Of a stretch of 24,819 bases of DNA, positions 1 to 20,091 are shown piece after piece. Position 1 is the stretch's first letter. Each line of letters begins with the position of its first letter. The stretch comes from Azonexaceae bacterium (GTDB taxonomy: Bacteria > Pseudomonadota > Gammaproteobacteria > Burkholderiales > Rhodocyclaceae). The translations under genes were made by a program, and so were the position numbers. Where the stretch lies: positions 1-24,819 of the forward strand of contig SSTB01000241.1 of NCBI GenBank assembly GCA_009469665.1, in the 5' to 3' direction. The notes under the pieces are model-generated. The model saw only the letters and a list, made by a program, of their open reading frames with translations. It was not told where the DNA came from and did not search any database.

Positions 1-3000
1 CTGGCCACCGACGCCATCGCCGCCGTTCCCACCGCCGTGGTCGCCAGCATGACCACGGACCAGATCGCCGCCCTCACCACCGACCAGGTACGCGCCCTGT
101 CCACGGCCCAGATCGCCGCCCTTACCAATGACCAGGTCGTCGCCCTCGGCACCGCCCAGTTCGCTGCCTTCCAGACCAGCCAGATCCAGGCCTTCACGTC
201 GACCCAGTTCCCGGCCGTCGAAACCATCGATCTCGCCGCCCTGTCCACCGCCCAGATCGTCGCCCTCACCACGGCCCAGGCGGCCTCGCTGACCTCGGCC
301 CAACTGGCGGCGCTGACCACCGCCCAGGTGAGCGCCCTGGAAACTGCCGACGTGGCGGCCATTTCCGCCACCGTCATCCCTGGTCTCACCACGGCCCAGA
401 CCCACACCCTGTCGGTGGCTCAACTCACCGCCCTGACCACCGCCCAGGTGCGCGCCCTGGAAACCGCCGACCTCGCCGCCCTCGACAGCGACCAGATCGC
501 CGGCCTCAGCACCGCCCAGGTCGCCAGCCTCACCACGGGCCAGATCGTCGCCCTGTCCACCGACCAGATCACCTACCTCACCACGGCCCAGGTCGCCGCC
601 CTCACCAGCACCCAGTTGCGGGCCCTGGAAACCGTCGACGTGGCCGCCCTCACCACGGCCCAGATCGCCGCCCTGTCGTCGAGCCAGATCGCCTCCCTGA
701 CCACCGATCAGTTCGCCTCCCTGACCACCGCTCAGATCGCCGCCATCGAAAACGCCGACATCCCTGCCCTGACCACGGCCCAGATCGTCGCCCTCACCAC
801 GGATCAGGCCCCGGCCCTGCGCACGGGCCAGGTAGCCGTCCTGACCACCGCCCAGATCGTCGCCCTGGAAAGCGCCGACCTGGCCGCGCTCACCACGGCC
901 CAGATACAGGCCATGACCACGGCCCAGATCGCCAAGCTCACCACGACCCAGATCTCCAAGCTCACCACCGCTCAGGTGGCCGCCCTCGAGACGGCCGACA
1001 TCGTCGCCCTGTCCACGGCCCAGGTGCAGCAATTGACCACCGCCCAGGTGGCCGCGCTCACCACCGCCCAGGTGGCCGCCCTCACCACCGCCCAACTGAC
1101 CACCCTGACGACGGCCCAGATCGCCGCCCTGACCACCACCCAGGCCCCGGCGCTCACCACCACCCAGGTTCAGGCCCTGACCACCGCCCAGGTCGCCGCC
1201 ATCGAGACCGCCGATCTCGCGGCCCTCACCACGGCCCAGGTCGCCGCCCTCACCACCAGTCAGATCGTCGCCCTGGGCACCGCCCAGCTCGCCGCCCTGA
1301 CCACGGCCCAGATCGCCGCCATTGAAACCGTCGATCTCGCGGCCCTGTCGGTCGCTTCCATCCAGAGCCTCACCACCGACCAGGTGGCCAACCTCACCAC
1401 CGCGCAGGTCGCCGCCCTCACCACCGCCCAGGTGGCGGGCATGGAAACCGCCGACATCGCCGTCCTGACGCCCACCCAGGTCGCCGCGCTGACCACGGCC
1501 CAGATCGCCAAACTGACCACGGCCCAGGTCGTCGCCCTCACCTCGGACCAAGTTCCTGCTATCGAAACCGCCGATCTCCAGGCCATGACCACGGCCCAGA
1601 TCGTCGCCCTGACCACGGCCCAGACGGCCACGCTGACCACGGCCCAGATTGCCGCCCTCACCACCGCCCAACTCCGGGCGCTGGAGACGGCGGACATCGC
1701 CGGCCTCAACAACGGGCAGTTGCAGGCCCTCACCACTGCCCAGGCGGCGGCCCTCACCACGGCCCAGGTGGCGGCCATTCCCACCAACCGCATCAGCGCC
1801 CTGGAAACGGTTGATCTCGCCGCCCTGACCACGGATCAGAGCGTCGCGCTGTCCACCGCGCAGGTGGCCAACCTGAGCACGGCCCAGGTGGCGGCCCTCA
1901 CCACCACCCAGGTGCGCGCCCTGGAGACCGGCGACATCGCCGCCCTGACCAGCGACCAGCTTCCCGCCCTGACCACCACCCAGGTGGCGGCGCTGACCAC
2001 TACCCAGATCGTGGCCCTGGCATCCACTCAGGTCGCCGCCCTCACCACCGCCCAGATCGCCGCCCTCACCACCGCCCAGATCCGGGCTCTGGAAACGGCC
2101 GACATCGCGGCGCTGTCCACCGCCCAGATCGTCGCCCTGACCACTGCTCAGGCCGCTGCGTTGACCACGGCCCAGGCCGCGGCTCTCACCACCGACCAGA
2201 TCGTCGCCCTGGAAACCGCCGACTTGGCGGCCCTCAGCACCGATGCCATCGCCGCCCTGAGCACCAGCCAGATCGCCGCCCTTACCACCACCCAGGTCGC
2301 CAACCTGACCACGGATCAGGTCCGCGCCCTGGAAACCGCCGACGTGGCAGCCCTTACCACCGCCCAGGTGGTCGCCCTCGGCACGGCCCAGTTCGTTGCC
2401 CTGGCGACGGCCCAGGTCGCTGCCCTCACTACGGCCCAGGCCGCCGCACTGCAGACGGTCGATCTGGCTGCCCTCTCCACCGCCCAGATTCGCGCCGTCG
2501 AAACGGTCGATCTCGCCGCTCTGTCCACAACGCAGATCGCCGCGCTTACCACCGCCCAGGTCGCCGCCCTCAGCACAGCCCAGATCGCAGCGCTCACCTC
2601 GGACCAGGTGGCGGCCTTGTCCACCACGCAATTCCAGGCCCTCACAACCGGCCAGGTCTCCGCCCTCACCACGGCCGATATCGCCGCACTGACCACGGAT
2701 CAAGTTGTCGCGCTCACTACAGCCCAGGCTGCCGCCCTCACCGCATCTCAGGCCGCCAAGCTGACCACCGCCCAACTGGCCGTGCTCGAGACCGCAGATC
2801 TGGTGGCCCTGACCACAACCGCCCTCGCCGGCATGACCACCACGCAGGTCGCTTCCCTCACCACCGCCCAGGTGGCGGCCCTGACCACCGACCAGATCGC
2901 CGCCCTCACCACGGGCCAGGTGGCCGCGCTGGAAACCGTGCAGATCGGCGCCCTGTCCACCAGCCAGCTCAGCCACCTGACCACGGCCCAGATCGTCGCC

Positions 3001-6000
3001 CTGACCACTGACCAGGCCTCCAGCCTCACCACCACTCAATTCGCAGCCCTCACCACCGCCCAGGTGGCGGCTCTCGAGACCGTCGATCTCGCCACCCTCT
3101 CAACCGCGCAGATCGTCGCCCTCACCACCTCCCAGGCCGCCGCGCTGACCGGCAGCCAGGCCGCCGCCCTCACCCTGGACCAGCTTGCTGCCCTGCAGAC
3201 AGCCGACCTCGCCAGCCTGAGCACCACGGCCGTCCAAAGCCTGACCACCACCCAGGTCGCCAACTTGACCACCGCCCAGGTGGCCGCCCTCACCACCACC
3301 CAGATTGCCGCCCTGGAAACCGTCGATCTCCAGGCCCTGTCGCCGCAGCACATCGCCGCCCTGACCAGCGCCCAGTTCGCCGCCCTCAGCACCACGCAGC
3401 TCGCCGCCCTGACCACCGGCCAAGTGGCGGCCATTTCCACCGCCAACCTCGCCAGCCTGACCACGGCCTCGGTGCGCAGCCTGGGCAGCGACCAGATCGC
3501 GGCGCTCACCAGCGCCCAGATCGTCGCCCTCACCACCGCCCAGGTCCATGCCTTGGAAACCGAGGACATCGCGGCTCTGACGACCAATCAGGCCGGTTGG
3601 CTGACTTCGGGCCAGATCGCCGCCCTCACCACCGCCCAACTCGTCGCCCTCACCACCAGCCAGGTACCGCAACTGGTGGTGACCGGCATCGCCGCCCTCA
3701 GCACCGCCCAGGTGGCGGCCCTGGAAACGGCGGACTTCGCTGCCCTGACCACCGACCAGATCATCGCCCTGACCACTGAGCAAGTGGCTTCCCTGGGCAC
3801 GGCCCAGCTCGTCAGCCTGACCACCGATCAGATTGCCGCCCTGCAGACCGCGGACCTGGCCGTCCTGTCCAGCAGCCAGATCGCCGCCCTGTCCACCGAC
3901 CAGGTCGCCGCCCTGAGCTTCGAACAGGTCCTCGCCCTGAGCACGGCCCAGATTCGCGCCCTTGAAACCGCCGACGTGGCAGCCCTGACCACCGACCAGG
4001 TCTCCCTCCTCAGCCCGACCCAGGCCGGCGCCCTCACTTCGGCCCAGCTCGTCGCCCTGTCCACCACGCAATTGCAGGCGCTCCAGCCGGCCGCCCTGGC
4101 CGCCCTTTCCACCGCTGTCGTCCCCGCCCTCTCGACCGCCCAGGTGGTGGCGCTCACCGATGACCAGCTCCTCTCGTTGACCACGGCGCAGATTCGCGTT
4201 CTGGAAACTGCCGATCTCGCCGCCCTGACCACGGCCCAGTTGCAGGTTCTCGATCCCACCCAGGTCGCCGCCCTCACCTCCGCCCAGATCGTCGCCCTCT
4301 CCACCGCCCAGGCGGCGGCCCTGACCACCGACCAGATCAGCGGCCTCACCACCGCCCAGGTGGCAGCCCTGGAAACCGTCGATCTCGCCGCCCTGACCAC
4401 GGCCCAGATCGCCGCCCTGGAAACCGCCGACGTCGCCGCGCTCACCACGGCCCAGATCGTCGCGCTTTCCACCGCCCAGGTCGCCGCCCTGGCCACCGAC
4501 CAGATCCGCGCCCTGACCACGGCCCAGGTGGCCGCCATCCAGACCGTCGATCTGGTGGAACTGTCCACCACCCAGGTGGCGGCCATGACCACCGCCCAGA
4601 TCGCCGCCCTCACCACCGCCCAGATCGCCGCCCTCACCACCGCCCAGGTGCAGAACCTGACCACGGCCCAGGTCGTCGCCCTGACCAGCGCCCAGGTGGC
4701 GGCCTTGGAGACCGCCGACCTGGTGACCCTGAGCACCGATCGCATTGCCGCCCTGGATACCGTCGACGTGGCGGCCATGGGCACGACCCAGATCGCCGCT
4801 CTGACCACCGACCAGGTGCAGGCCCTGACCACGGCGCAGATCGTCGCTCTCTCCAGCGACCAGTTCGTCGCCCTGGGCACTGCCGGCATCGCCGCCCTCA
4901 CCACCGACCAGTTGGTCGCGGTCGAATCGGGCGATCTCGCCGCCCTCACCACCGCCCAGATCGTCGCCCTGAGCACCGATCACGCCGCAGCCCTGTCGTC
5001 GCGGCAGTTGTCGGCCCTGAGCACCGCGCAACTGGCGGCCATGGAGACTGCCGACCTCGCCGCAGTCACCACGGCAGCCCTGCAGGGCCTTACCACGGCC
5101 CAGGCCGCCAACCTCACCACGGCCCAGGTCGCCAATCTGACCACCGACCAGATCGCTTCCATCAAGACCTCGCCCCTGGCGGCGCTCACCACGGCGCAGA
5201 TCGCCGCTCTGGCCACCGACCAGGCCGCAGCGCTCACCAGCACGCAGTTGCAGGCCCTCACCACCGCCCAGGTGGCGGCCATCGAGACCGCCGATCTTGC
5301 GGCCATTACCGCCGCCCGCTTCGCCACCCTGCGCACCTCCAGCATCGCCGCCCTGACCACGGACCAGATCGTGGCCATCACCACGGATCAGGCCGCCGCC
5401 CTCACCTCGGCCCAACTGGCGGCCATGAGCACCGCCCAGGTCGCGGCCCTGGAAACCGCCGACCTGGTCAACATCGCCACCACCGTGGTGCCCAGCTTCA
5501 CCACCGCCCAGGTGGCAGCCCTCACCACGGACCAGGTCGCGGCGCTCACCACCGACCAGGTCGCAGCCCTGGAAACCGCCGACGTCGCCGCACTCACCAC
5601 GGCGCAGATCCAGGCCCTCACCACCGCCCAGATCCAGGCCCTCACCACCGCCCAGGTGGCAGGTCTCACCTCGGCCCAGGTCGGGGCTCTGGAGACCGTC
5701 GATCTGGCCGCCCTGACCACGGCTCAGGTCGCCGCCATCGAAGGCGTTGATCTGGGAGCCCTGAGCACGACCCAGATCGTGGCACTTACCACGGATCAAG
5801 TCGGCGCCCTGACAACAGCCCAGATCGTTTCGCTGACCGCAGCCCAGGTGGCGGCCCTCACCACCGACCAACTCGGCGCGCTCTCCACCGCCCAGGTGGC
5901 GGCCATCCAGGGCGGAGACCTGGCTGCCATGAGCACCGATCAGATCGTCGCGCTTTCCACGGCCCAGGTTGCCGCGCTGACCACGGCCCAGATCGTCTCC

Positions 6001-6573
6001 CTCACCTCCGCTCAGGTCCAGGCCCTGGAGACGGTGGACGTCGCTGCCCTAACCACCGCTCAGGTAGCCGCCATCCAGGGCAGCGACTTGGCAGCCATGA
6101 CCACCGGCCAGATCGTCGCCCTGGGTACCGACGTCTCCGCCCTGACCACGGCCCAGATCGTCGCCCTGACCACGGTGCAGTACGCCAACATGACCACGGA
6201 TCAGATTGCGGCCCTGACCACCACCCAGGTCGAAGCCATGCAGATCACCGACCTGCAGGCCCTCACCACGGCCCAGATCGAAGCCCTCACCACCGCCCAG
6301 ATCGGGGCCCTCACCACCGCCCAGATCTTCGCCCTGACCTCGGCCCAGGTGGCGGCCATCGAGACCGCCGACATCGCCGCCATGACCTCGGAGCAATTCG
6401 GCGCCCTGAAGACCTCTCAATTCGCGGCCCTCACCACCGACCAGATCGCCGCCATCGAGACCGCCGACATCGCCGCCCTCACCACGGCCCAGCTCTCGCA
6501 CCTCAGCATGCCGCAGCACGACGCCTTCACCGGCGGCCAGCTGGGCGCGATGACCGCTGAGCAATTGGCTGCG
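1..6573 (+). repeat. 24-bp tandem array encoding octads, with a 120-bp super-period
   Basis: Units start at base 1 and every 24 bases after it. I checked the row starts every 120 bases from 1 to 6121 and all are in phase, giving 255 octads. Bases 6121-6141 encode a single seven-residue unit (LGTDVSA), and 18 further octads run from 6142 to 6573. Position 1 is L/I/M/V, positions 2-3 are mostly T/S-T, position 5 is Q, position 6 is I/V and position 8 is A. A variant with E at position 2 and D at position 5 (LETADLAA) occurs at 217, 337, 457, 625, 745, 865, 985, 1201, 1321, 1441, 1561, 1681, 1801 and 1921. It continues beyond these, most often 120 bases apart. Synonymous variation, for example ACC or ACG for the second Thr, is common, so the DNA is less uniform than the protein. 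Confidence 0.97.
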
Positions 6574-7203
6574 CTGGCCCTATCCACCCCGCTGGTCCTC
6601 GACCTGAACGGGGACGGCGTCGATACCGTGGGCCTCTCCGCCGGCGTCGAATTCGACTTGAACGCCACCGGCCAGGCGGTCGCCACCGGCTGGGTCGGCA
6701 AGGATGACGGCCTGTTGGCCATCGACCTGGACGGCAACGGCCGCATCGACGACGGCCGCGAACTGTTCGGCAGTGCCTTCATCCTGGAGGATGGCAGCAC
6801 CGCCGCGAATGGCTTCGAGGCCCTGGCCAGCCTGGACGACAACGGCGACGGTGTCGTCGATGCGGCGGACAGCGGCTTCGCCAGCCTCGTGGTGTGGAAG
6901 GACGTGAATCAGGATGGCACCAGCCAGACTGACGAACTCTTCGACCTCAGCGCCCTGGACATCACTGCCCTGGGCACCGGCGCTACGGCCTCCACGGCCC
7001 TGGACGACGGCAACTGGCTGGGCCTTACCGGCAGCTACAGCACAGCCGACGGGGCCACCCACGCCCTGGCGGACGTCTGGTTCCAGACCGCGCCCGCCGA
7101 GGCCCCTGCGGCCCCCAGCACTGCGGCCGATGAAACCGCCCTGTTCTCGGAAGACGACTTCCTCATGCCGCCGGCGAGCGACAGCCAGGACTGGTTGCTA
7201 TAA
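1..7203 (+). CDS. Giant octapeptide-repeat type I secreted protein (5' end outside window)
   Basis: The reading frame is open from base 1, and the first codons already encode repeat units. The GTG at 37 is therefore not a believable start and the gene begins upstream. Bases 1-6573 encode octads of consensus LTTAQ[I/V]xA, rich in Thr, Ala, Leu and Gln, with no cysteine and almost no aromatics. From about 6592 the protein changes to a calcium-binding domain with loops LDLNGDG (6598), IDLDGNG (6721), LDDNGDG (6832) and DVNQDG (6901). It also carries WVGKDDGLLA and GRELFG, which are hallmarks of the C-terminal domain of RTX/FrpC-like proteins. There are no GGxGxDxxx nonapeptides. The last residues are acidic and end in DWLL, as in type I secretion signals. 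A glycosyltransferase and a type I exporter follow. I infer a secreted or surface fibre/adhesin. The repeat itself I cannot assign to a known family. Confidence 0.9.
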   Translation: MATDAIAAVPTAVVASMTTDQIAALTTDQVRALSTAQIAALTNDQVVALGTAQFAAFQTSQIQAFTSTQFPAVETIDLAALSTAQIVALTTAQAASLTSAQLAALTTAQVSALETADVAAISATVIPGLTTAQTHTLSVAQLTALTTAQVRALETADLAALDSDQIAGLSTAQVASLTTGQIVALSTDQITYLTTAQVAALTSTQLRALETVDVAALTTAQIAALSSSQIASLTTDQFASLTTAQIAAIENADIPALTTAQIVALTTDQAPALRTGQVAVLTTAQIVALESADLAALTTAQIQAMTTAQIAKLTTTQISKLTTAQVAALETADIVALSTAQVQQLTTAQVAALTTAQVAALTTAQLTTLTTAQIAALTTTQAPALTTTQVQALTTAQVAAIETADLAALTTAQVAALTTSQIVALGTAQLAALTTAQIAAIETVDLAALSVASIQSLTTDQVANLTTAQVAALTTAQVAGMETADIAVLTPTQVAALTTAQIAKLTTAQVVALTSDQVPAIETADLQAMTTAQIVALTTAQTATLTTAQIAALTTAQLRALETADIAGLNNGQLQALTTAQAAALTTAQVAAIPTNRISALETVDLAALTTDQSVALSTAQVANLSTAQVAALTTTQVRALETGDIAALTSDQLPALTTTQVAALTTTQIVALASTQVAALTTAQIAALTTAQIRALETADIAALSTAQIVALTTAQAAALTTAQAAALTTDQIVALETADLAALSTDAIAALSTSQIAALTTTQVANLTTDQVRALETADVAALTTAQVVALGTAQFVALATAQVAALTTAQAAALQTVDLAALSTAQIRAVETVDLAALSTTQIAALTTAQVAALSTAQIAALTSDQVAALSTTQFQALTTGQVSALTTADIAALTTDQVVALTTAQAAALTASQAAKLTTAQLAVLETADLVALTTTALAGMTTTQVASLTTAQVAALTTDQIAALTTGQVAALETVQIGALSTSQLSHLTTAQIVALTTDQASSLTTTQFAALTTAQVAALETVDLATLSTAQIVALTTSQAAALTGSQAAALTLDQLAALQTADLASLSTTAVQSLTTTQVANLTTAQVAALTTTQIAALETVDLQALSPQHIAALTSAQFAALSTTQLAALTTGQVAAISTANLASLTTASVRSLGSDQIAALTSAQIVALTTAQVHALETEDIAALTTNQAGWLTSGQIAALTTAQLVALTTSQVPQLVVTGIAALSTAQVAALETADFAALTTDQIIALTTEQVASLGTAQLVSLTTDQIAALQTADLAVLSSSQIAALSTDQVAALSFEQVLALSTAQIRALETADVAALTTDQVSLLSPTQAGALTSAQLVALSTTQLQALQPAALAALSTAVVPALSTAQVVALTDDQLLSLTTAQIRVLETADLAALTTAQLQVLDPTQVAALTSAQIVALSTAQAAALTTDQISGLTTAQVAALETVDLAALTTAQIAALETADVAALTTAQIVALSTAQVAALATDQIRALTTAQVAAIQTVDLVELSTTQVAAMTTAQIAALTTAQIAALTTAQVQNLTTAQVVALTSAQVAALETADLVTLSTDRIAALDTVDVAAMGTTQIAALTTDQVQALTTAQIVALSSDQFVALGTAGIAALTTDQLVAVESGDLAALTTAQIVALSTDHAAALSSRQLSALSTAQLAAMETADLAAVTTAALQGLTTAQAANLTTAQVANLTTDQIASIKTSPLAALTTAQIAALATDQAAALTSTQLQALTTAQVAAIETADLAAITAARFATLRTSSIAALTTDQIVAITTDQAAALTSAQLAAMSTAQVAALETADLVNIATTVVPSFTTAQVAALTTDQVAALTTDQVAALETADVAALTTAQIQALTTAQIQALTTAQVAGLTSAQVGALETVDLAALTTAQVAAIEGVDLGALSTTQIVALTTDQVGALTTAQIVSLTAAQVAALTTDQLGALSTAQVAAIQGGDLAAMSTDQIVALSTAQVAALTTAQIVSLTSAQVQALETVDVAALTTAQVAAIQGSDLAAMTTGQIVALGTDVSALTTAQIVALTTVQYANMTTDQIAALTTTQVEAMQITDLQALTTAQIEALTTAQIGALTTAQIFALTSAQVAAIETADIAAMTSEQFGALKTSQFAALTTDQIAAIETADIAALTTAQLSHLSMPQHDAFTGGQLGAMTAEQLAALALSTPLVLDLNGDGVDTVGLSAGVEFDLNATGQAVATGWVGKDDGLLAIDLDGNGRIDDGRELFGSAFILEDGSTAANGFEALASLDDNGDGVVDAADSGFASLVVWKDVNQDGTSQTDELFDLSALDITALGTGATASTALDDGNWLGLTGSYSTADGATHALADVWFQTAPAEAPAAPSTAADETALFSEDDFLMPPASDSQDWLL

Positions 7204-7222
7204 GATCGCCGCGTCCCGAACC

Positions 7223-7259
7223 ACAGCCGGCGGGGGCCTCCCCTGCCGGCTGTTTTCTT
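7223..7259 (+). terminator. Strong rho-independent terminator after the giant gene
   Basis: The nine-base arm ACAGCCGGC pairs with GCCGGCTGT. Inside it GGGGG pairs with CCCCT (one G-T wobble), leaving a CCT loop: a 14-pair stem followed by TTTTCTT. It lies 19 bases after the stop codon at 7201-7203 and just before the glycosyltransferase start. Most transcripts of the giant gene should end here, so the glycosyltransferase depends on read-through or on a promoter I could not identify. Confidence 0.88.
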
Positions 7260-7271
7260 GAGCCAGCCCCC

Positions 7272-9098
7272 ATGACCGAAACCCGTGCCGCCGACCTGGA
7301 TACCGCCCTGGCCGAGGCCCGCAGCCTTGCCGCCGCGGACGCCCTCGACCCCATGGCGGTCATCGGACTGGCCGACCGCCTGGGAGGCGCCGGTCGCACG
7401 GCCGAGGTGGTCGATTTCTACCGGCTCTGGCTGCAACACACCCACTCGCCTCTGGCCCACATCGTCCGCTTCAACCTGGCCGTCGCCCTCACCCAGATCG
7501 ATCGATTTGCCGAGGCCGAGGAAAGCTACCGCAAAGCGATTTTTGAAAAGCCGGATTTCGTCCAGGCCTGGTTCAACATCGGCACTGTCATCGAGCGCCA
7601 GGGGCGAGCCCCCCAGGCCCTCGCCGTCTGGCAGTCCATGCTCGACCACCCCCTAGTCGGCCCCCAGCTCAACCGGGATCTCTACATCCTGGTTCTCAAC
7701 AGCATGGGCCGCCTGCAGGAAGAGAACCGCAATTTCCACGCGGCAGAAGAAAAACTGGCCGCCAGCCTGAGCGTCGATCCAGACCAACCCAAGGTCATCC
7801 AGCACTGGGTCCACCTGCGCCAGAAGCAGTGCGCATGGCCGGTGTTCTGTGACTTCCCCGGCCTCTCCGTGGGCAACATGCTGCGCGCCACCTCCCCCCT
7901 GGCCATGCTCTCCGCCAGCGACGACCCGGGGCTGCAACTTGCTACCGCGGTCCACTTCGCCCAGGAACGCATCAACACCCGCGTTCCCGTTCTGGCTCCC
8001 TCCCAGGGCTATGCCCATCCCCGCCTGCGCTTGGGCTTCCTGTCATCGGACTTCTGCCTGCACGCCGTGTCCCTGCTCACCGTCGAACTCTTCGAACTGC
8101 TCGACCGCGAACGCTTCGAACTCTACGGCTTCTGCTGGAGCCGGGAAGACGGCTCGGCCATGCGGGCCCGCGTCATCCGCGCCTTCGACCACTTCTTCAA
8201 GATCGGCGGCCTGGACGACGCCACCGCGGCCCAGGCCATCCGCCAGAACGAGATCGACATCCTCATCGACCTGCAAGGCCTCACCTCGGGCGCCCGGCCC
8301 AACATCGTCGCCTACCGGCCGGCGCCGGTGCAGATGACCTACCTGGGTTTCCCCGGCCCCACCGGCCAGCCGGGAATCGACTACGTCATCGCCGATCGCT
8401 ACCTCATCCCCGACGCCGAACGTCCCTATTACACCGAGAAACCCCTCTATCTCCCCAAGGTCTTCCAAAGCAGCGACCGCCAGCGCCCCGTGTCACCTTT
8501 ACCCACCCGGCAGCAGTGCGGACTGCCCGAGGCCGGATTCGTGTATTGCTGTTTCAACAACAACTACAAATTCACCGAGGCCATGTTCGAAACCTGGCTG
8601 CGCATCCTGACGCGGGTTCCCGACAGCCTCCTCTGGCTGCTGTCCGACAACCCCTGGGCCCAGGCCAACCTCACCGCCCGGGCCGAGGCCCGCGGCATCG
8701 ACAAGGGCCGCCTCCTCTTCGCCCCGAGGGTTGCGCCGCCCGACTACCTCGCCCGCTACACCGCGGCCGACCTCTTCCTCGACGCCTATCCCTTCAACGG
8801 CGGCACCACCGCAAACGACGCGCTGTGGATGGGGCTCCCCGTCCTCACCCTCTCCGGCCGCACCTTCGCCTCCCGCATGGCCGGGGGCCTGCTCACTTCC
8901 CTAGGCGTACCCGAACTCATCGCCACCGACTTATCCGCGTACGAGGAAAAGGCCGTCGCCCTGGGCAAGGACCCCGCCCGCCAACGGGAACTGCGCCGCC
9001 GCGTCGAAGAGGCGCGGCAAACGTCGCCGCTGTTCGACATGCCCGGCTTCGTGCGGGATTTCGGCGACGCCATCGCCGGGGTGGCGATGCGGCGCTGA
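7272..9098 (+). CDS. GT41 (SPINDLY/OGT-type) TPR protein O-glycosyltransferase
   Basis: A 608-residue protein with tetratricopeptide-like helices at about residues 65-170 (for example FAEAEESYRKAIFEKPDF) and a GT41 catalytic region after that. Recognisable blocks are LRLGFLSSDF with the following HAVSLL, DILIDLQGLTSGARP, RPAPVQMTYLGFPGPTGQPG, DYVIAD, CCFNNNYKFT (the conserved Lys region that contacts the nucleotide sugar in OGTs), and LDAYPFNGGTTANDALW with GLPVLTL. The family transfers GlcNAc or another sugar from UDP to Ser/Thr, or to Asn in HMW1C relatives, in the cytoplasm. The ATG at 7272 has only a weak ribosome binding site. Its position directly after a Thr-rich giant protein makes that protein the obvious acceptor; this is inference. 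The sugar donor cannot be read from sequence. Confidence 0.93.
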   Translation: MTETRAADLDTALAEARSLAAADALDPMAVIGLADRLGGAGRTAEVVDFYRLWLQHTHSPLAHIVRFNLAVALTQIDRFAEAEESYRKAIFEKPDFVQAWFNIGTVIERQGRAPQALAVWQSMLDHPLVGPQLNRDLYILVLNSMGRLQEENRNFHAAEEKLAASLSVDPDQPKVIQHWVHLRQKQCAWPVFCDFPGLSVGNMLRATSPLAMLSASDDPGLQLATAVHFAQERINTRVPVLAPSQGYAHPRLRLGFLSSDFCLHAVSLLTVELFELLDRERFELYGFCWSREDGSAMRARVIRAFDHFFKIGGLDDATAAQAIRQNEIDILIDLQGLTSGARPNIVAYRPAPVQMTYLGFPGPTGQPGIDYVIADRYLIPDAERPYYTEKPLYLPKVFQSSDRQRPVSPLPTRQQCGLPEAGFVYCCFNNNYKFTEAMFETWLRILTRVPDSLLWLLSDNPWAQANLTARAEARGIDKGRLLFAPRVAPPDYLARYTAADLFLDAYPFNGGTTANDALWMGLPVLTLSGRTFASRMAGGLLTSLGVPELIATDLSAYEEKAVALGKDPARQRELRRRVEEARQTSPLFDMPGFVRDFGDAIAGVAMRR

Positions 9099-9695
9099 AC
9101 CGCCAGCGCGATGCCCCTGCGGCATTCCATGGGGACGAGCACCGTACGCTGTGCGATCGCGGACAAAATCTCAGCCCGGAGGGTCTTGCTTGCCCTGGGC
9201 GTAGCCGAGCAATTCAGGCGCCCCGTCTCCCGATCAATATGCCCCGGCGGACTGATGGCCGTGCCCCGCGAGGGCCAAGCGCTTCGGACAACGTTCTTCG
9301 CCGCGAAAGCGCGATGATGCAGACATCGAGAAGGATCACGCAGCCCATGATCACCAGAACCCAGGAGAAGACTGGTCCGTAGAAGATGTGAACCGCCCGC
9401 GGACCGGAGGAGGAACCGAGCAGGGCCAGCATCGAGTCGAAAAATCCTGTTCGAAGCGGCTGCCGCAAATACTGCAACCTTATGGACTCCAACTCCCGCT
9501 GCTCTTCGCGCTAATGCAACTTGCGCCAGCGCATCCGCCAAAATCCCCAGGCCATGAGGAGTGCTCCCGCAATGAACTTGTTTGGCAGGAGTGTCGTCAT
9601 GAAGTTGCTGACGCGGAGTTGCGATCCGCAAGCGCAGGCGAGGCTGAAGACGGCAGGGCCAGCATCGCTCTCGAACTCGGACGAACCATACCCGT
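9099..9695. other. 597-bp region with no convincing gene
   Basis: This lies between the convergent ends of the glycosyltransferase and the methyltransferase. Plus-strand open frames here have no recognisable composition or domain. On the minus strand there are membrane-protein-like fragments, listed separately. I see no tRNA and no insertion-sequence ends. The sequence may be a decayed gene or filler at an accessory locus boundary. Confidence 0.5.
9214..9600 (-). pseudogene. Possible remnant of a small membrane protein, split by a TAG stop
   Basis: Read from the ATG at 9600, this frame gives 29 residues containing a hydrophobic helix (KFIAGALLMAWGFWRMRW), then a TAG at 9511-9513. It stays open in the same frame for about 98 more codons to 9214. 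The second part has an amphipathic start (REEQRELESI), a Pro-Leu-Arg segment, and a strong hydrophobic helix (FSWVLVIMGCVILLDVCII) followed by Arg residues, as expected for a positive-inside membrane segment. The two pieces could be one gene broken by a nonsense mutation, two tiny genes, or a chance open frame. I do not recognise the family, and no clear ribosome binding site precedes either part. Confidence 0.25.
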
Positions 9696-10475
9696 TCAGC
9701 GCTTGAGCACCAAGCCCTGCCCCGTGGGCAAGGGGAAGACCCGGTAGCCCCGGGCCTCGAACCAGGGGTCTTCCGCCTGTTTCTGTTTGCGATAGACCCC
9801 TGCCCATTCATAGTCGTCGAGGATGACGATGCCGCCGCTCACCACGCGGTCGAAGAGTCCCTCCAGGGCGGCGAGCTCGCCTTCGGCGTTGTTGAGGTCG
9901 ATGTGTAGGTAGGCGAGTTTTTCCGGCATGCCCTGGGCGAAGGAATCGGGGATGAAGCCGGCGATGAGCCGCACCTGGGGATAGGCGGCGAAGCGGGCCT
10001 TGACCTTGTCGAAGAAGCCCGCTTCCTGACCGGCGAAGTGGTGGCCTTCGACCGGGTTGTAGTCGAAGGTGTCGTAGCCCCAGAAGGTCTTGGGAAAGGC
10101 GGCTCCCCCCAGGTAGTCCATGACGGTCTTGATGCCGGTTCCGGTGTAGACGCCGCACTCGGCGAAATCGCCCTCCAGTTGGACGCAATGGAAGGCCGCG
10201 CAGGCGAGAATGTAGCGCCGCCAGGCGATGGCCTGGTCGGCGTCGTTCTGGATGTTGGAGCCCCAGGCCTCGCGGAAAGCGTCGTCTTCGAAGAGGGAGT
10301 TGTTGCGCCCCCAGGTCAGGAGGTTGTCGCCGAGGTAGACGCCCGAAGTGAGCAGTTTTTTGGCTTCTTCGAGCAGGGCCATGAAGCGGACCGGATCGCT
10401 GATCCCCCAGGATTTGGGCGTGGAAAAGTTGATCACCTGTTCAAGGGAAAGGGGTTTCAGACGGGGGAGGTCCAT
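9696..10475 (-). CDS. TylF/macrocin O-methyltransferase-like SAM methyltransferase
   Basis: A 259-residue protein counted from the ATG at 10475, which has AGAGG nine bases upstream. A longer open frame to 10553 adds a Pro/Arg/His-rich leader that looks non-coding. The SAM-binding glycine loop is DFAECGVYTGTG (103-114). FWGYDTFD follows at 131-138. The metal and sugar-binding block HIDLN (191-195) and the ILDDY motif with Asp220-Asp221 match the TylF family, which methylates hydroxyls of sugars in antibiotics, O-antigens and flagellar or surface glycans. It is transcribed against its neighbours, between the GT41 gene and the type I exporter, and diverges from the exporter. I infer that it methylates the sugar attached by, or supplied to, the neighbouring glycosyltransferase. 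The acceptor is unproven. Confidence 0.85.
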   Translation of the reverse strand: MDLPRLKPLSLEQVINFSTPKSWGISDPVRFMALLEEAKKLLTSGVYLGDNLLTWGRNNSLFEDDAFREAWGSNIQNDADQAIAWRRYILACAAFHCVQLEGDFAECGVYTGTGIKTVMDYLGGAAFPKTFWGYDTFDYNPVEGHHFAGQEAGFFDKVKARFAAYPQVRLIAGFIPDSFAQGMPEKLAYLHIDLNNAEGELAALEGLFDRVVSGGIVILDDYEWAGVYRKQKQAEDPWFEARGYRVFPLPTGQGLVLKR

Positions 10476-10636
10476 GGGGATACGCCTCTGAGGATGGCCG
10501 TGCCGGTGAAGGGGAGAGGATGCCGGAAGCGCCGGAACGCGGCGCGGGGCCATGCTACCAGCTTGGCCCGCCCGGGGAAACGTCCCCTCCGGGTGACGCC
10601 GCGTCGATCTCTGATGCCAGGGCGCAGCTGCCGCTT

Positions 10637-10642
10637 TACAAT
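10637..10642 (+). promoter_or_regulatory. Possible -10 element of the type I exporter operon
   Basis: TACAAT matches the sigma-70 -10 consensus at five of six bases and lies about 50 bases before the exporter ATG, inside the 219-bp divergent spacer with the methyltransferase. No good -35 is present at 17 bases; TGATGC at 19 bases is poor. An activator-dependent promoter is possible. Confidence 0.35.
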
Positions 10643-10694
10643 CCCGCGTCCGCCGCCTTCGTCACTCCCCCAGGAGCGACTTCCCCCGCCGCCC

Positions 10695-12356
10695 ATGAAA
10701 GCTCTGCTCCGCCCTTACCGTTACGTCGTGATCCTGGCGGCGGGGATCAGCTTCTTCCTCAATCTGCTTCTGTTGGCGCCGACCTTCTACATGATGCAGA
10801 TTTTCGACCGGGTGTTCATGAGCCGCAGCCTGGACACCCTGGGCTGGCTGTCCTTCATCGTCCTGCTCATGCTGCTTTTCTACCTGGCGGTCGATTGGCT
10901 GCGGGGCCGCATGATGACCAGCGCCGCCCTACTTTGTGACCGCCTCCTCGGCGAGCGGGTCCTGCGCGTCGTCCTGGACGACGCCGTGCAGCCCGGCTTC
11001 GGCCGCCACGGCTTCCTCATGCGGGACGTCGCCGCCATCCGCCGCTTCATCGCGGGCAATGGCCTAAGCGCCCTGCTCGACAGCCCCTGGCTGCCGGTCA
11101 TGCTGCTGCTCATTTTCCTCTTCCACCCGGTCCTGGGCCTTCTTGCCTTCGTGTGTTCGGCGGCGCTGGTCATTCTGGCGGTTTTGAACAATCGCGTCAG
11201 CCAGAAGCCGGTGGAAGACCTGCAAATGGTCAGCCGCAAGGCCAGCGGCTATATCGATTCCAGCCTGCGCAACGCGGAAGTGGTCCGCGCCATGGGCATG
11301 TTTCCCGCCCTCGCCCAGCGCTGGGACGCCATCAATCACCAGGCCCTGCGCCATCAGCACGAAAGTGGGCGCATTTCGGCGCTGGTGAGTGGTCTCTCAC
11401 GCTTTTCCCGCCAGATCGTCCAGGTCATCATGGTCGGGGCCGGGGCATACCTGGTGGTGGGGCAGAACGCTACGCCGGGCATCATGCTCGCCACCACCCT
11501 CATCCTGGGCCGCGCCCTGGCCCCGGTAGAGCACCTGATCGCGAGCTGGAAGGACATCCTCGAAGCCCGCGCCGCTTACCGCCGCCTGGAAGAGGCCTTC
11601 GCGCAAAGCGCCCACCAGGCGCCGCGCACCCGCCTGCCCGAACTCAAGGGCGCCCTGGAAGCCGACCGGGTGGTCTATGCCCTGGCCCCCAACAGCCCTC
11701 CCCTGGTCAAGGGAGTCAGCTTTGCCCTGGCCGCGGGCGAATTCCTCGGCATCATCGGTGCCAGCGGCTCCGGCAAGTCGTCGCTCTTGCGCCTGCTCAC
11801 CGGAACCTGGCGGCCCCAGGCCGGCAGCGTGCGCTACGACAACGCGGAAATCGCCCAGTGGCTGCCCGAGGAACTGGGGCGCCAGATCGGCTACCTTCCC
11901 CAGGACATCGAGCTTTTTCCCGGCACGGTAAGCGACAACATCGCCCGCATGGGCGTGCCTGACAGCGAGGCGGTGGTCACCGCCGCCCACCGCGCCGGCG
12001 TGCACGACATGATCCTGCGCCTACCCCAGGGCTACGACACCGAGATCGGCCCCGGTGGTGCGGCGCTTTCTGGAGGGCAGCGGCAGCGCATCGCCCTGGC
12101 CCGGGCGCTGTACGGGGGACCGCGCCTCCTCCTGCTCGACGAGCCCAATTCCAACCTGGATGCGGAAGGGGAAACGCTCCTGCAGCAGATCCTCGGCCAG
12201 TTGAAGGCAGAGGGCGTCACCCTGGTGGTGGTCACCCACCGTCGTTCCCTGGTGGCCGCCAGCGACAAGCTCCTGGTGCTGCGCGAGGGCGCCGTCGCCC
12301 TCTACGGGCCCAGCCGCGAGGTGGTGGAAAAGCTCTCCGGCGGAGGCGCCGCATGA
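10695..12356 (+). CDS. Type I secretion ABC transporter (PrtD/HlyB-type permease-ATPase)
   Basis: A 553-residue fused permease-ATPase. The N-terminal membrane region has hydrophobic segments at about 11-30, 52-68, 132-166 and 240-275. The ATPase has Walker A GASGSGKS (355-362), Q-loop YLPQDIELFPGT (400-411), signature LSGGQ (458-462), Walker B LLLLDE (478-483) and switch His515. There is no C39 peptidase domain, so the substrate is expected to carry an uncleaved C-terminal signal, as RTX-type proteins do. The start chosen is the ATG at 10695, where the hydrophobic N-terminus begins; the frame is open far upstream over the methyltransferase gene, which is a shadow. The stop overlaps the next start (ATGA at 12353-12356), indicating translational coupling. 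The likely substrate is the giant repeat protein 3.5 kb upstream. Confidence 0.95.
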   Translation: MKALLRPYRYVVILAAGISFFLNLLLLAPTFYMMQIFDRVFMSRSLDTLGWLSFIVLLMLLFYLAVDWLRGRMMTSAALLCDRLLGERVLRVVLDDAVQPGFGRHGFLMRDVAAIRRFIAGNGLSALLDSPWLPVMLLLIFLFHPVLGLLAFVCSAALVILAVLNNRVSQKPVEDLQMVSRKASGYIDSSLRNAEVVRAMGMFPALAQRWDAINHQALRHQHESGRISALVSGLSRFSRQIVQVIMVGAGAYLVVGQNATPGIMLATTLILGRALAPVEHLIASWKDILEARAAYRRLEEAFAQSAHQAPRTRLPELKGALEADRVVYALAPNSPPLVKGVSFALAAGEFLGIIGASGSGKSSLLRLLTGTWRPQAGSVRYDNAEIAQWLPEELGRQIGYLPQDIELFPGTVSDNIARMGVPDSEAVVTAAHRAGVHDMILRLPQGYDTEIGPGGAALSGGQRQRIALARALYGGPRLLLLDEPNSNLDAEGETLLQQILGQLKAEGVTLVVVTHRRSLVAASDKLLVLREGAVALYGPSREVVEKLSGGGAA

Positions 12357-13684
12357 AGGCGCTCCTGGCTTTCCTCGCCGGTCGGCCCGACCTGGATCCA
12401 GCGGAAAGGGAACTCCGGCTGTGGGCATTCGCGGCTGGCGCCACGGTCCTCCTGGCCGGCCTCGCCTTCCTGGCCTGGGGACTCCTCGCCCCCCTGGACG
12501 GCGCCGTGGTGGCCTCGGGCAGCATCCGGGTCGAGAACGCCCGGCAGCAGGTCCAGCATCAGGAAGGCGGCCTGGTAAAGCGCATCCTGGTCAAGAATGG
12601 CGACAAGGTGCAGAAGGACCAGGAGCTGCTTGAGATCGAGGATTTGCGGGTTTCCGCCAGTACCGGAATCATCCGCCAGAGCATCGCGGGAGAACTCGCC
12701 AAACAGGCGCGCCTCGCCGCGGAGCGGGATTTCCGCGAGCGCATCGTCTTTCCCCCCACCTTGACCCAAAAGGCCGACGATCCTTTCATCAGCAGTATCC
12801 TAGCCAAAGAGCAGGAGCTGTTCGAACAGCGACGCAGAACGCTGCACGAACAACTCGACGTTCTTGGCCAGCAGATCGCCGAAACCGGGCGAGAGATCGA
12901 AGCCACCCGGCAGCAGGTCGCCGCCGACGAGGCCTCCAGCAAGGCCATGGAGGACGAGCTCAAGGCCCATCAGGGTCTGCTGGAAAAAGGCTTCATCTCG
13001 CCCACCCGCATGTACGGCCTGCAACGCAGCGTGGCCGAGTATCGCTCCCGCCTGGCCGAGCACCGGGCGGACCTCTCCCGCGCCCTGCAAAAGCAGAACG
13101 ACCTGCGTCTCAAGCAGCAGGATGTCCGCAACACGGCGCGCCAGACCGCCCTGGCCGAACTGAAGGATTCTTTCTCCCGCCTCGCGGACCAGGAGGAACA
13201 ATTGCGCCCGGCGCAGGATGCAGACCGACGCCAGATGGTGCGCTCCCCCACCGACGGCGTCGTGGTCAACCTCAAGGCCAACACCATAGGCGCCGCCATC
13301 GGACCCCGGGACGCGATCATGGAAATCGTCCCGGAGAACCAGGAACTCATCGTCGAGGTGCGCCTGCCTCCGGATTCCATCCTGCAACTGCGTACCGGCA
13401 TGGCGGCCGAAGTGCGACTCCTGGCCTACGACGCCCGCACGACGCCCCTGGTCGCCGGCCATCTGAAGTATCTCTCCGCCGACGTGTTGAGCGACCCCAA
13501 TGGCGCCACCTATTACGTCGGCCAGGTGTCCCTGGACCCCCGCTCCCTTGCCGAGGCCCGCATCGACATCGTCCAGGCGGGCATGCCGGCAGAAGTGTAT
13601 ATCCGCACCACGCCGCGCACGGCTTTCCAGTACCTTGCCGACCCGGTCACCAGCTCCCTCACCCGGGCTTTTCGCGAGCGCTGA
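12353..13684 (+). CDS. Type I secretion membrane fusion protein (HlyD/PrtE family)
   Basis: A 443-residue periplasmic adaptor. A short cytoplasmic N-terminus is followed by a membrane helix (about 24-46, WAFAAGATVLLAGLAFLAWG). Next come the family block GAVVASGSI (50-58) and the lipoyl-like half QVQHQEGGLVKRILVKNGDKV (66-86, shared by almost all family members). A long helical, coiled-coil-like region rich in Gln, Glu, Arg and Ala spans about 125-290. The second lipoyl half is around RSPTDGVVVNLKANTIGA, then a beta-barrel region, and the tail ends in SSLTRAFRER, as in other PrtE-type proteins. It links the ABC transporter to an outer-membrane TolC channel. It overlaps the transporter gene by four bases. 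No TolC homologue follows in the window, so the channel must be encoded elsewhere. Confidence 0.94.
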   Translation: MKALLAFLAGRPDLDPAERELRLWAFAAGATVLLAGLAFLAWGLLAPLDGAVVASGSIRVENARQQVQHQEGGLVKRILVKNGDKVQKDQELLEIEDLRVSASTGIIRQSIAGELAKQARLAAERDFRERIVFPPTLTQKADDPFISSILAKEQELFEQRRRTLHEQLDVLGQQIAETGREIEATRQQVAADEASSKAMEDELKAHQGLLEKGFISPTRMYGLQRSVAEYRSRLAEHRADLSRALQKQNDLRLKQQDVRNTARQTALAELKDSFSRLADQEEQLRPAQDADRRQMVRSPTDGVVVNLKANTIGAAIGPRDAIMEIVPENQELIVEVRLPPDSILQLRTGMAAEVRLLAYDARTTPLVAGHLKYLSADVLSDPNGATYYVGQVSLDPRSLAEARIDIVQAGMPAEVYIRTTPRTAFQYLADPVTSSLTRAFRER

Positions 13685-13694
13685 CCGGGGAAGG

Positions 13695-13719
13695 GCGCGT
13701 GGCAGGGAAGCCCACGCGC
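13695..13719. terminator. GC-rich stem-loop after the exporter operon
   Basis: GCGCGTGG and CCACGCGC form a perfect eight-pair stem with a nine-base loop, 10 bases after the membrane fusion gene. There is no T-run after it, so it may be a transcript-end stabiliser or a weak terminator. Confidence 0.3.
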
Positions 13720-13830
13720 GCGGCAGGGCAGGCGCGGATTAACAAGTCCTAACAGGGCGTAACAGCGCTGCCGCAGCCGACGGCCTAGATTCTGCCGGTC
13801 GCACGCCTCCCGGGCGTCGGAAAGGCCCCC

Positions 13831-14181
13831 ATGAAATCCACCCTCGTCGTCGCCCTTGCCACTACCGCCCTTGCGGCCTGTAGCGCCCTGTCTCCTGGTC
13901 ACGGGCACCCCCAAGGTCCACCCGTGGCCGTCGTGCCCCCGCCCGCCCAGGTGGAAGACGTTCCCGTCGGCCCGCCACCCCCCCGGCACGAACTGGCCGG
14001 CCCACCGCCCGCCGTAGGCCTGATCTGGATCGACGGTTACTGGAACTGGTCGGAAGGGCGGCACGCCTGGGTTCCCGGTCATTGGGAAGCGCCCCGTCCC
14101 GGCCACCACTGGGTACCCCGCCGCTGGGAACAGCGTGGGGGCCAGTGGGCCCTGCGCGGGGGCTACTGGAACCGACACTGA
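13831..14181 (+). CDS. Small lipoprotein with YxWxxGxW-like Trp-rich repeats
   Basis: A 116-residue protein with a lipoprotein signal peptide: basic start, hydrophobic core, and lipobox LAAC with the acylated Cys at residue 17. A Pro-rich linker follows (about 25-60). The C-terminal half has aromatic repeats such as WIDGYWNW, HAWVPGHWEAPRPGHHWVP and GGYWNRH, typical of the YXWXGXW/WxxGxW-repeat envelope proteins common in Betaproteobacteria (the BcpO-like group). The function of that family is not established; a periplasmic or outer-membrane location is expected. A GGAAAGG sequence precedes the ATG at about the right distance. It is followed by its own terminator, so it is probably a single-gene unit rather than part of the exporter operon. 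Confidence 0.85.
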   Translation: MKSTLVVALATTALAACSALSPGHGHPQGPPVAVVPPPAQVEDVPVGPPPPRHELAGPPPAVGLIWIDGYWNWSEGRHAWVPGHWEAPRPGHHWVPRRWEQRGGQWALRGGYWNRH

Positions 14182-14242
14182 GGAGTGCCGGCTACGCTTG
14201 CAATCCTTTTGACAAGCCGCAACAATAGTCCTTCGGTACGAG

Positions 14243-14268
14243 AGGGGGCCACAAGCCCCCTTGCTTTT
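14243..14268 (+). terminator. Rho-independent terminator after the lipoprotein gene
   Basis: AGGGGGC and GCCCCCT form a seven-pair stem with loop CACAA, followed by TGCTTTT. It sits 61 bases after the lipoprotein stop codon and 42 bases before the next start, so it separates the two genes. Confidence 0.8.
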
Positions 14269-14310
14269 GGGCGAGTCCTTTCGCCGCCCTCCCTCCAGAC
14301 AGGAGCCGCA

Positions 14311-14586
14311 ATGCTGAAGTGGGTGTATATCTTCTGGCCGTCCTTCGCGACCGCCATCATCGGCGAAGCCGTGTTCTTCGCCTTCATCAATCCCCAGGAA
14401 CTGTATCTGATGGGCAAGCCCGTCTATTGGAGCCCGCTGGCCATCTACTCGACGGGTTTCCTCATGTTCTGGGGGCTCACGGCCCTCACCACCTGGGCGA
14501 TGCTTTTCTTCCTCAAACCGGCGGACGAAATCAACCGCCCCATCGAATCCCGGCCGGGCGCCGCGCGGGAACGCCCCCAGTCCTGA
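14311..14586 (+). CDS. Small two-helix inner-membrane protein of unknown function
   Basis: A 91-residue protein from the ATG at 14311, preceded by AGGAG at an ideal six-base spacing. Two hydrophobic helices are clear: about residues 4-26 (WVYIFWPSFATAIIGEAVFF) and 42-68 (containing STGFLMFWGLTALTTWAMLF). They are joined by a short polar loop, and the tail is charged and Pro/Arg-rich. The frame is open upstream to 14185, but that part runs through the terminator and is not coding. It resembles small conserved membrane proteins annotated as hypothetical in Betaproteobacteria. I cannot assign a role. Confidence 0.8.
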   Translation: MLKWVYIFWPSFATAIIGEAVFFAFINPQELYLMGKPVYWSPLAIYSTGFLMFWGLTALTTWAMLFFLKPADEINRPIESRPGAARERPQS

Positions 14587-14612
14587 AGCGCTTGCGGGGG
14601 CAGCCACGGACG

Positions 14613-14630
14613 CCCTTGGGACAAGGGTTT
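14613..14630 (+). terminator. Short hairpin after the two-helix membrane protein gene
   Basis: CCCTTG-GGA-CAAGGG is a perfect six-pair stem with a three-base loop followed by TTT. A second hairpin, CGTGAA-TTGC-TTCACG, lies at 14651-14666 and is followed after a few bases by CGTTTT. Either could end the transcript, but both have short T-runs. Confidence 0.4.
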
Positions 14631-15974: not shown

Positions 15975-15983
15975 GGGGTTTCC

Positions 15984-20089: not shown

Positions 20090-20091
20090 GT

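What the first reader, a model, noticed from the sequence alone, without database searches (positions are those of the whole stretch)
1..13684. Candidate self-contained system: glycosylated giant fibre with its own O-glycosyltransferase, sugar methyltransferase and type I exporter
The repeat protein offers roughly two Thr/Ser per octad, hundreds in total. It is followed by a GT41 protein O-glycosyltransferase, a TylF-type sugar methyltransferase, and a type I ABC transporter with a membrane fusion protein, while its own C-terminus looks like a type I substrate. Each part is a known family. The combination suggests cytoplasmic O-glycosylation of a repeat fibre, perhaps with O-methylated sugars, coupled to one-step export. 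I do not know of a described system with this exact architecture and octad substrate.
Basis: inference. Interest (0 to 1): 0.87.

Follow-up and report, generated by a model that had tools for sequence, protein, structure and literature searches.

The report
Sugar-coated giant repeat-protein secretion system
Many bacteria carry a gene for a giant, very regular repeat protein next to its own sugar-attaching enzyme and often a one-step export pump and a methyl-transferring enzyme, which together look like an undescribed kit for making a heavily sugar-coated surface fibre, although no one has yet shown the sugars.

Summary
The parts are real. Window 1-7203 is the 3' part of a giant gene: 273 nearly gap-free octads (Pfam ALTTAQ; 540 Ser/Thr), then a Ca-binding module related to the FrpC self-processing module but without its Asp-Pro site. 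GT41 follows after 68 nt, then TylF on the opposite strand and a PrtD-type ABC + HlyD pair. Exporter genes join the pair in 18 of 80 loci and elsewhere in other orders. New: a hairpin between repeat gene and GT41 (41 of 52 spacers); a small methyltransferase beside the pair or fused to GT41 (18 of 80); GT41 fused to second glycosyltransferases; a predicted mini-helix solenoid. TylF is in 3 of 80 loci. Flagellin-type genes lie near GT41 in 15 of 80. Glycosylation and export are inferred, not shown.

The parts
1..6573 (+). ALTTAQ octad array, 273 octads, truncated 5' by the window edge; predicted alpha-solenoid with one mini-helix per octad
   Evidence: PF20080 1812 bits; octad parse; AF2 pLDDT 95, pTM 0.84 on 240 residues
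6574..7203 (+). C-terminal Ca-binding module homologous to the FrpC self-processing module (about 6589-7080) plus a low-confidence tail ending DWLL; Thr replaces the Asp of the Asp-Pro cleavage site
   Evidence: PDB 6sjw E 2.4e-38; AF2 and fold match TM 0.82 by target; Ser/Thr in 33 of 34 ORFs
7223..7253 (+). Intercistronic hairpin, 14-bp stem, terminator-like, between octad gene and GT41
   Evidence: 6 terminator-like sites found in 7100-14900 against 5.2 in shuffles, so the scan alone is not evidence; spacer z -4.5; z < -2 in 41 of 52 spacers against 10 of 51 control stretches
7272..9098 (+). GT41 glycosyltransferase with N-terminal TPRs, 608 aa
   Evidence: PF13844 273.9 bits; nearest solved structure XcOGT E 8.8e-103; H264 and K433 conserved 81/81
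9696..10475 (-). TylF-family SAM methyltransferase, convergent with GT41
   Evidence: PF05711 46.2 bits; relatives beside GT41 in L006 and L007
10695..12356 (+). Type I secretion ABC permease/ATPase, PrtD subfamily
   Evidence: TIGR01842 628.7 bits against cut-off 510.15
12353..13684 (+). HlyD-type membrane fusion protein; start overlaps the ABC stop by 4 nt
   Evidence: TIGR01843 340.8 bits against cut-off 208.65

Best explanation
This is a dedicated glycoprotein-export module. The octad gene makes a giant alpha-solenoid fibre that presents about two Ser/Thr per 8-residue unit. The neighbouring TPR-GT41 enzyme O-glycosylates these residues in the cytoplasm at many sites; in some lineages a second glycosyltransferase extends the sugar and a SAM methyltransferase methylates it (TylF in this window; more often a small Methyltransf_11-type enzyme, sometimes fused to GT41). 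The ABC-HlyD pump, with a TolC partner, then exports the chain in one step, and outside the cell calcium folds the C-terminal module. A hairpin between the two genes is likely to keep the enzyme's level below that of its substrate. Shown: the gene families, their conserved linkage, the fusions, the hairpin, the loss of the Asp-Pro site. Predicted: the fold. Inferred: glycosylation of the octads, the sugar, its methylation, export by this pump, the hairpin's role, and the role as a surface fibre.
For: Linkage: octad gene in the held locus for 69 of 80 GT41 relatives; none seen for 11, of which 7 have under 3 kb of sequence upstream of GT41. All 37 genomes searched (those of 37 chosen loci of the 80) have ALTTAQ matches over the cut-off. 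Pseudomonas sample: 5 of 5 ALTTAQ genomes carry the adjacent GT41, 3 of 114 others any GT41, Fisher p 3e-7; without the centre genome G001, which was known to have the system, 4 of 4, p 5e-6. Phylum sample: 16 of 16 genomes with at least 6 ALTTAQ matches have GT41 against 88 of 283, p 2e-8; with any match 17 of 25 against 87 of 274, p 4e-4; without G001 15 of 15, p 6e-8, and 16 of 24, p 8e-4. Exporter: PrtD-type ABC + HlyD + OEP convergent with GT41 in 15 Pseudomonas loci; repeat-ABC-HlyD-GT41 in L044 and L051; GT41 divergent from ABC-HlyD-octad in 6 of 8 regions taken from the phylum sample; ABC-HlyD-OEP-octad in L110, the genome of L006, whose glyS is 82% identical to the window's, best of 19 genomes searched; octad, GT41, ABC, HlyD and a methyltransferase on C. 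sphaeroides 2.4.1 plasmid pA. Fusions: the methyltransferase at the C-terminus of GT41 in L029, L053, L063, L068 and at its N-terminus in L036, L060; GT4-type enzyme fused to GT41 in L055 and L072, GT2-like in L034. Hairpin. Precedents for cytoplasmic glycosylation of an exported protein by a soluble enzyme: HMW1C (PMC3983070, passages) and FlmG (PMC7591256, passages).
Against: No direct evidence of glycosylation. No ABC-HlyD pair was detected in the held DNA of 62 of 80 loci with my two ABC and two HlyD queries; many contigs are short and my flanks start at GT41, so a pump upstream of a giant gene is missed. In L019 and L021 (Pseudomonas) whole octad genes are held and no pump is near. Many octad proteins end in octads without the Ca module or a recognised export signal; among the 80 loci I saw no pump beside these, though L086 has such an end together with a pump. 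Flagellin, FliD or FlgL homologues lie within 10 kb in 15 of 80 loci. TylF is in 3 of 80 loci. Three of the six methyltransferase fusions (L029, L063, L068) have no octad gene in the held locus, although the genomes of L029 and L063 have ALTTAQ matches; L036 showed the fused domain by phmmer but not by Pfam. On pA an RTX/Calx-beta protein lies close by and could be the pump's cargo. Genomes are related (L081-L086 look like one clade), so the Fisher values are not corrected for phylogeny. 8 of 25 ALTTAQ genomes in the phylum sample lack GT41; these have 1-5 matches each, and only one (G345) was inspected: no octad ORF.
Confidence: 0.62

Rival explanations
1. The GT41 enzyme is primarily a flagellin glycosyltransferase, as FlmG is in Caulobacter, and the octad protein is an associated flagellar-region or surface protein rather than the substrate.
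For: Flagellin, FliD or FlgL homologues within 10 kb of GT41 in 15 of 80 loci; FliF and FliG beside the ABC-HlyD-octad genes in L107; FlmG is a TPR-containing cytoplasmic enzyme acting on flagellin (PMC7591256, passages).
Against: In 65 of 80 loci, in the window and in the three plasmid regions the same flagellin, FliD and FlgL queries found nothing, while an octad gene is in the locus for 69 of 80; in Pseudomonas ALTTAQ arrays and this GT41 go together although only 5 of 119 genomes have arrays. Many loci are short, so absence of flagellin there is weak evidence.
Confidence: 0.12
2. The octad protein is glycosylated but not exported by the neighbouring pump: it stays in the cell or leaves by another route, and the ABC-HlyD pair serves another cargo.
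For: Octad proteins ending in plain octads without a pump seen nearby; an RTX/Calx-beta protein beside the system on pA; in the window the pump is a separate transcription unit.
Against: Exporter genes recur beside octad genes in different arrangements and two exporter subtypes; the C-terminal module belongs to a class that the literature describes as folding after type I export (PMC7078468, passages); no signal peptide is evident by eye at the complete N-termini (no predictor was run).
Confidence: 0.17
3. GT41 acts mainly as a TPR chaperone that keeps the giant chain soluble and unfolded for export, with sugar transfer incidental or lost.
For: The GT41 proteins scanned carry TPRs; a chaperone role is discussed for HMW1C (PMC3983070, passages).
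Against: The His and Lys aligned with XcOGT are conserved in 81 of 81 sequences, and second glycosyltransferases and methyltransferases are fused to GT41, which fits a sugar-making enzyme.
Confidence: 0.06
4. The neighbourhood is coincidence, or reflects a hot spot that collects surface genes.
For: Other glycan genes are near some of these loci and three clusters sit on plasmids.
Against: The association in the two genome samples and the adjacency in the loci.
Confidence: 0.02

Closest known systems
HMW1A/HMW1B/HMW1C of Haemophilus influenzae
   Same: A GT41 enzyme encoded beside a giant adhesin modifies it in the cytoplasm before export (PMC3983070, passages).
   Different: HMW1C makes N-links on Asn, has an AAD fold instead of TPRs, and the adhesin leaves by Sec and two-partner secretion; the window's GT41 scores 29.9 bits against the NGT cut-off of 1000.
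FlmG flagellin O-glycosyltransferase of Caulobacter
   Same: Soluble TPR-plus-transferase protein glycosylating an exported protein in the cytoplasm (PMC7591256, passages).
   Different: Substrate is flagellin, exported by the flagellar route; here the partner is an octad solenoid with a type I pump in several lineages. The passages I saw do not place FlmG in GT41.
FrpC-type RTX proteins with a self-processing module
   Same: Homologous Ca-binding module in a type I export setting.
   Different: The Asp of the Asp-Pro site is Ser/Thr in 33 of 34 octad ORFs and no RTX family was among the Pfam matches of the octad protein, so clip-and-link is not expected.
Bacterial O-GlcNAc transferase XcOGT
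   Same: Best solved relative of the enzyme, E 8.8e-103.
   Different: All 81 enzymes aligned have GTT where XcOGT has HTT; donor sugar unknown.
Serine-rich-repeat adhesins with accessory Sec export (recalled, not looked up)
   Same: A repeat adhesin glycosylated in the cytoplasm by linked enzymes and exported by a linked pathway.
   Different: Gram-positive, unrelated enzymes, exporter and repeat.

Membership tests
ALTTAQ_rpt (PF20080) | Score above Pfam's gathering cut-off | tested here: met
   1812.2 bits against 26.4
GT41 / O-GlcNAc-transferase-like | Glyco_transf_41 domain with TPRs | tested here: met
   PF13844 273.9 bits; TPR_16 34.8 bits against 32.7
GT41 / O-GlcNAc-transferase-like | Conserved His and Lys of the active site (their role is recalled) | tested here: met
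   H264 and K433 in 81 of 81 sequences, aligned to H and K of XcOGT
GT41 / O-GlcNAc-transferase-like | Transfers GlcNAc to Ser/Thr | not testable with these tools
   No biochemistry
HMW1C-type N-glycosyltransferase | NCBIfam NGT equivalog cut-off | tested here: not met
   29.9 bits against 1000
Type I secretion system | PrtD/HlyB-type ABC protein | tested here: met
   TIGR01842 628.7 against 510.15
Type I secretion system | HlyD-type adaptor | tested here: met
   TIGR01843 340.8 against 208.65
Type I secretion system | TolC-type outer membrane protein | tested here: inconclusive
   No match to the two OEP queries in the window, which is short; OEP beside the pump in 15 Pseudomonas loci and L110
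RTX type I cargo | Glycine-rich nonapeptide repeats | tested here: not met
   No RTX family among the Pfam matches of the octad protein or its C-terminus
FrpC-type self-processing module | Ca-binding SPM fold | tested here: met
   6sjw E 2.4e-38; TM 0.82 by target
FrpC-type self-processing module | Asp-Pro bond at the module's N-terminal edge | tested here: not met
   Thr-Pro in the window; Asp in 1 of 34 ORFs
TylF methyltransferase | PF05711 above cut-off | tested here: met
   46.2 bits against 23
TylF methyltransferase | Methylates a sugar | not testable with these tools
   No biochemistry
FlmG-type flagellin glycosylation | Flagellin as partner | tested here: inconclusive
   Flagellin-type gene near GT41 in 15 of 80 loci, none found in the window or the three plasmid regions; substrate not testable

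The most novel reading that the evidence does not exclude
A widespread, undescribed class of bacterial 'glycofibres', found in Pseudomonadota and in loci labelled Geobacteraceae, Holophagaceae, Riflebacteria and Ozemobacter (many of them MAGs): a single chain of up to several thousand residues folded as a mini-helix solenoid and O-glycosylated at hundreds of Ser/Thr by a dedicated GT41 subfamily, with sugars extended and methylated by enzymes that have fused to GT41 several times, the enzyme's dose set by an attenuator hairpin, and the product pumped out in one step by type I exporters.
Probability: 0.42. Interest if true: 0.86.

Novelty: new variant of a known kind. Interest (0 to 1): 0.74.

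Why it matters
If true, it adds another cytoplasmic 'glycosylate, then export' route to the HMW1C and FlmG precedents, with an extremely dense and regular acceptor, and it gives a role to a Pfam repeat family for which my paper searches for its name and accession found nothing. A copy on plasmid pA of the laboratory strain Cereibacter sphaeroides 2.4.1 makes it testable at once. It would also offer a ready-made scaffold and enzyme pair for making uniform glycopolymers, and may bear on biofilm matrix glycoproteins of organisms such as Accumulibacter, Thauera and Nitrosomonas, whose loci are in the set.

Tried and rejected
Clip-and-link (FrpC-like self-cleavage and cross-linking) was considered for the C-terminal module and rejected because the Asp of the Asp-Pro site is missing.

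A relic of the small methyltransferase in the gap between GT41 and TylF was looked for by tblastn with six such proteins; the one low-E match (27 residues) overlaps TylF's own coding end in another frame, so no relic.

A GT41 motif that would mark the octad-linked enzymes (GTT instead of HTT) was tested on GT41 genes away from arrays (16 regions); both HTT and GTT occur among the few my pattern caught and it missed many, so it is not diagnostic.

A viral origin: no GT41 relative in viral contigs or in the phage collection at E 1e-20.

ALTTAQ and PF20080 gave 0 papers, one search gave 0. Of the GT41, glycosylation and type I secretion combinations I saw only listings: 20 of 360, 9 of 9, 20 of 69, 6 of 6, titles and abstract starts; none of those described this combination. 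on SwmB of Synechococcus gave nothing I used. Subscription papers are mostly not held, so 'undescribed' is limited to these searches. Papers opened: PMC7078468, PMC7591256, PMC3983070, passages only.
Full report
WHAT IS THERE. The left 7.2 kb of the window is one open frame, cut at the window edge. It encodes 273 octads of the form L-T-T-A-Q-V-A-A over 2191 residues with a single 7-residue break; 540 residues are Ser/Thr, 1.97 per octad. A marker octad with Glu or Gln at position 2 (mostly ETADLAA-like) occurs 47 times, most often every fifth octad (26 of 46 spacings). Pfam knows the repeat as ALTTAQ_rpt, PF20080 (1812 bits). AlphaFold2 on 240 residues gives one mini-helix of 5-6 residues per octad at mean pLDDT 95 and pTM 0.84. 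Structure comparison finds only generic matches.

C-TERMINUS. The last 630 nt encode a homologue of the FrpC self-processing module (6sjw, E 2.4e-38; TM 0.82 by target length) followed by a tail of pLDDT under 50. In FrpC a Ca-triggered break occurs at an Asp-Pro bond (PMC7078468, passages). Here the residue before Pro is Thr, and it is Ser or Thr in 33 of 34 octad ORFs in which a pattern search found the module; L064 alone has Asp. So the Ca-binding fold is kept and the cutting site is not.

GENES. GT41 starts 68 nt after the octad stop. TylF (10475-9696) faces it from the other strand, and the ABC-HlyD pair (10695-13684) is divergent from TylF across 219 nt. The ABC and HlyD genes overlap by 4 nt. 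Both pass NCBIfam type I secretion cut-offs. GT41's best solved relative is XcOGT (E 8.8e-103), and its HMW1C-type score is far below cut-off (29.9 against 1000).

CO-OCCURRENCE. A scan of genome contigs with GT41 alone as query found 138 relatives; the best 80 were kept. An octad gene, counted by its octads or by its C-terminal module where the contig cuts the array (as in L007, L014, L051), is within 300 nt on the same strand in 54 (52 upstream, 2 downstream), elsewhere in the held locus in 15, and not seen in 11. The genomes of 37 of the 80 loci were searched and all 37 have ALTTAQ matches. These loci were chosen by GT41 similarity, so two further samples were drawn. In 119 Pseudomonas genomes GT41 is in 8 and ALTTAQ in 5, and all 5 ALTTAQ genomes carry a 616-634 aa GT41 frame a few kb from the array (Fisher p 3e-7). 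One of the 5, G001, is the centre of the sample and was known to have the system; without it 4 of 4 and p 5e-6. In 299 genomes of the phylum GT41 is in 104 and ALTTAQ in 25; the 16 genomes with at least 6 ALTTAQ matches all have GT41 (p 2e-8; without G001 15 of 15, p 6e-8), and 17 of 25 with any match (p 4e-4; without G001 16 of 24, p 8e-4). One of the 8 exceptions was inspected and has no octad ORF. The p values ignore kinship.

EXPORTER. An ABC-HlyD pair is in 18 of 80 loci: 15 Pseudomonas loci with an ABC-HlyD-OEP triplet convergent with GT41, and L044, L051, L060 with another ABC subtype (a C39-like domain in L044) and HlyD beside GT41. Of 8 regions taken from the phylum sample, 7 chosen because listed matches of both families lay near each other on one contig plus one GT41 contig end, 6 show GT41 divergent from ABC-HlyD-octad, one shows only an ABC gene before the contig ends, one shows none; the six resemble each other and may be one clade. 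Of 5 further regions fetched to look upstream of octad genes or around a pump, 3 show ABC-HlyD beside the octad gene: L106 divergent by 93 nt, L107 and L110 in line; in the other two only octads were found. L110 is from the genome of L006, the closest to the window by glyS (82%) of 19 genomes searched; there ABC, HlyD, OEP and the octad start follow each other, and the array runs into the contig end. Of 57 plasmid records with a GT41 match, three were inspected, and all three carry octad genes, GT41 and type I exporter genes (in L113 only the ABC gene lies in the stretch). One is pA of C. sphaeroides 2.4.1, where the octad protein is called an ice nucleation protein.

METHYLATION AND EXTENSION. 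TylF matches are in 3 of 80 loci (L006, L007, L008). A different, small SAM methyltransferase is in 18 of 80 and in the three plasmid regions; in the 80 it is a separate gene close to the pair in 12 and fused to GT41 in 6, at the C-terminus in L029, L053, L063, L068 and at the N-terminus in L036 and L060. Pfam confirmed the fused domain in L053 and L063 but not in L036; the others were not scanned. L029, L063 and L068 have no octad gene in the held locus; the genomes of L029 and L063 do have ALTTAQ matches, that of L068 was not searched. GT41 is fused to a GT4-type enzyme in L055 and L072 and to a GT2-like domain in L034, all three with octad genes nearby. Two fusion orders in different lineages argue that methylation and sugar addition serve one product.

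HAIRPIN. The spacer between octad gene and GT41 holds a strong hairpin in the window (14 bp). Over 52 spacers (window plus 51 of the 52 loci with an upstream octad gene; L007 dropped because its spacer came out empty; spacers run to the first in-frame ATG and were cut at 160 nt) 41 have z below -2 and 48 a stem of at least 9 bp; equal-length stretches just after GT41 give 10 and 22 of 51 (p 1e-9 and 5e-8). The control may itself hold terminators, which makes it conservative. An attenuator that lets less enzyme than substrate be made is the likely role, inferred; a separate promoter for GT41 is not excluded.

AGAINST. No exporter pair was detected in 62 of 80 loci. A second class of octad proteins ends in plain octads. 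Flagellin-type genes lie near GT41 in 15 of 80 loci and FliF/FliG near the exporter in L107, so a flagellar link, or flagellin as a second substrate, is open in those lineages; the same queries found none in the window or the plasmid regions. No sugar has been seen.

VERDICT. TylF is a local extra. The system works like HMW1C and FlmG glycosylation; the HMW1C membership test was not met and the FlmG one is inconclusive.

Noticed in passing
window 14924-24571: Mostly housekeeping genes on the minus strand, read by eye as glyQ, glyS, gmhB, an acyltransferase, lnt and a CorC-like gene; only the YgjP-like metallopeptidase was confirmed by Pfam, and glyS found relatives in 18 of 19 genomes.
   Followed up: no
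L112 5778-8867: An RTX/Calx-beta protein next to the octad-GT41-exporter cluster on C. sphaeroides plasmid pA, a possible alternative cargo of the pump.
   Followed up: partly
L107 6681-11516: A sigma-54 activator, FliF and FliG lie beside the ABC-HlyD-octad genes, as if the cluster sits in a flagellar region.
   Followed up: partly
L111 6545-13836: The octad gene of the Pseudomonas asturiensis plasmid is annotated as three open frames, named heme utilization protein and hypothetical proteins; described only.
   Followed up: no
L087 3-10595: A 3531-residue open frame with several GT41 regions (phmmer score 1417) next to a 2084-residue octad frame.
   Followed up: no
L085 8933-11413: An 827-residue protein with a ParA-like N-terminus and many TPRs between GT41 and the exporter genes.
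   Followed up: no
L052 2-9703: Two octad frames in tandem, both with the Ca module, before GT41.
   Followed up: no
L112 21033-27226: Two sulfotransferases, dTDP-rhamnose genes (rfbABCD) and a glycosyltransferase downstream of the cluster on pA, which might hint at the sugar.
   Followed up: no
L044 10747-11586: A FdtA/WxcM-like sugar-nucleotide enzyme with a hexapeptide acyltransferase part directly after GT41, another possible sugar-tailoring gene.
   Followed up: no
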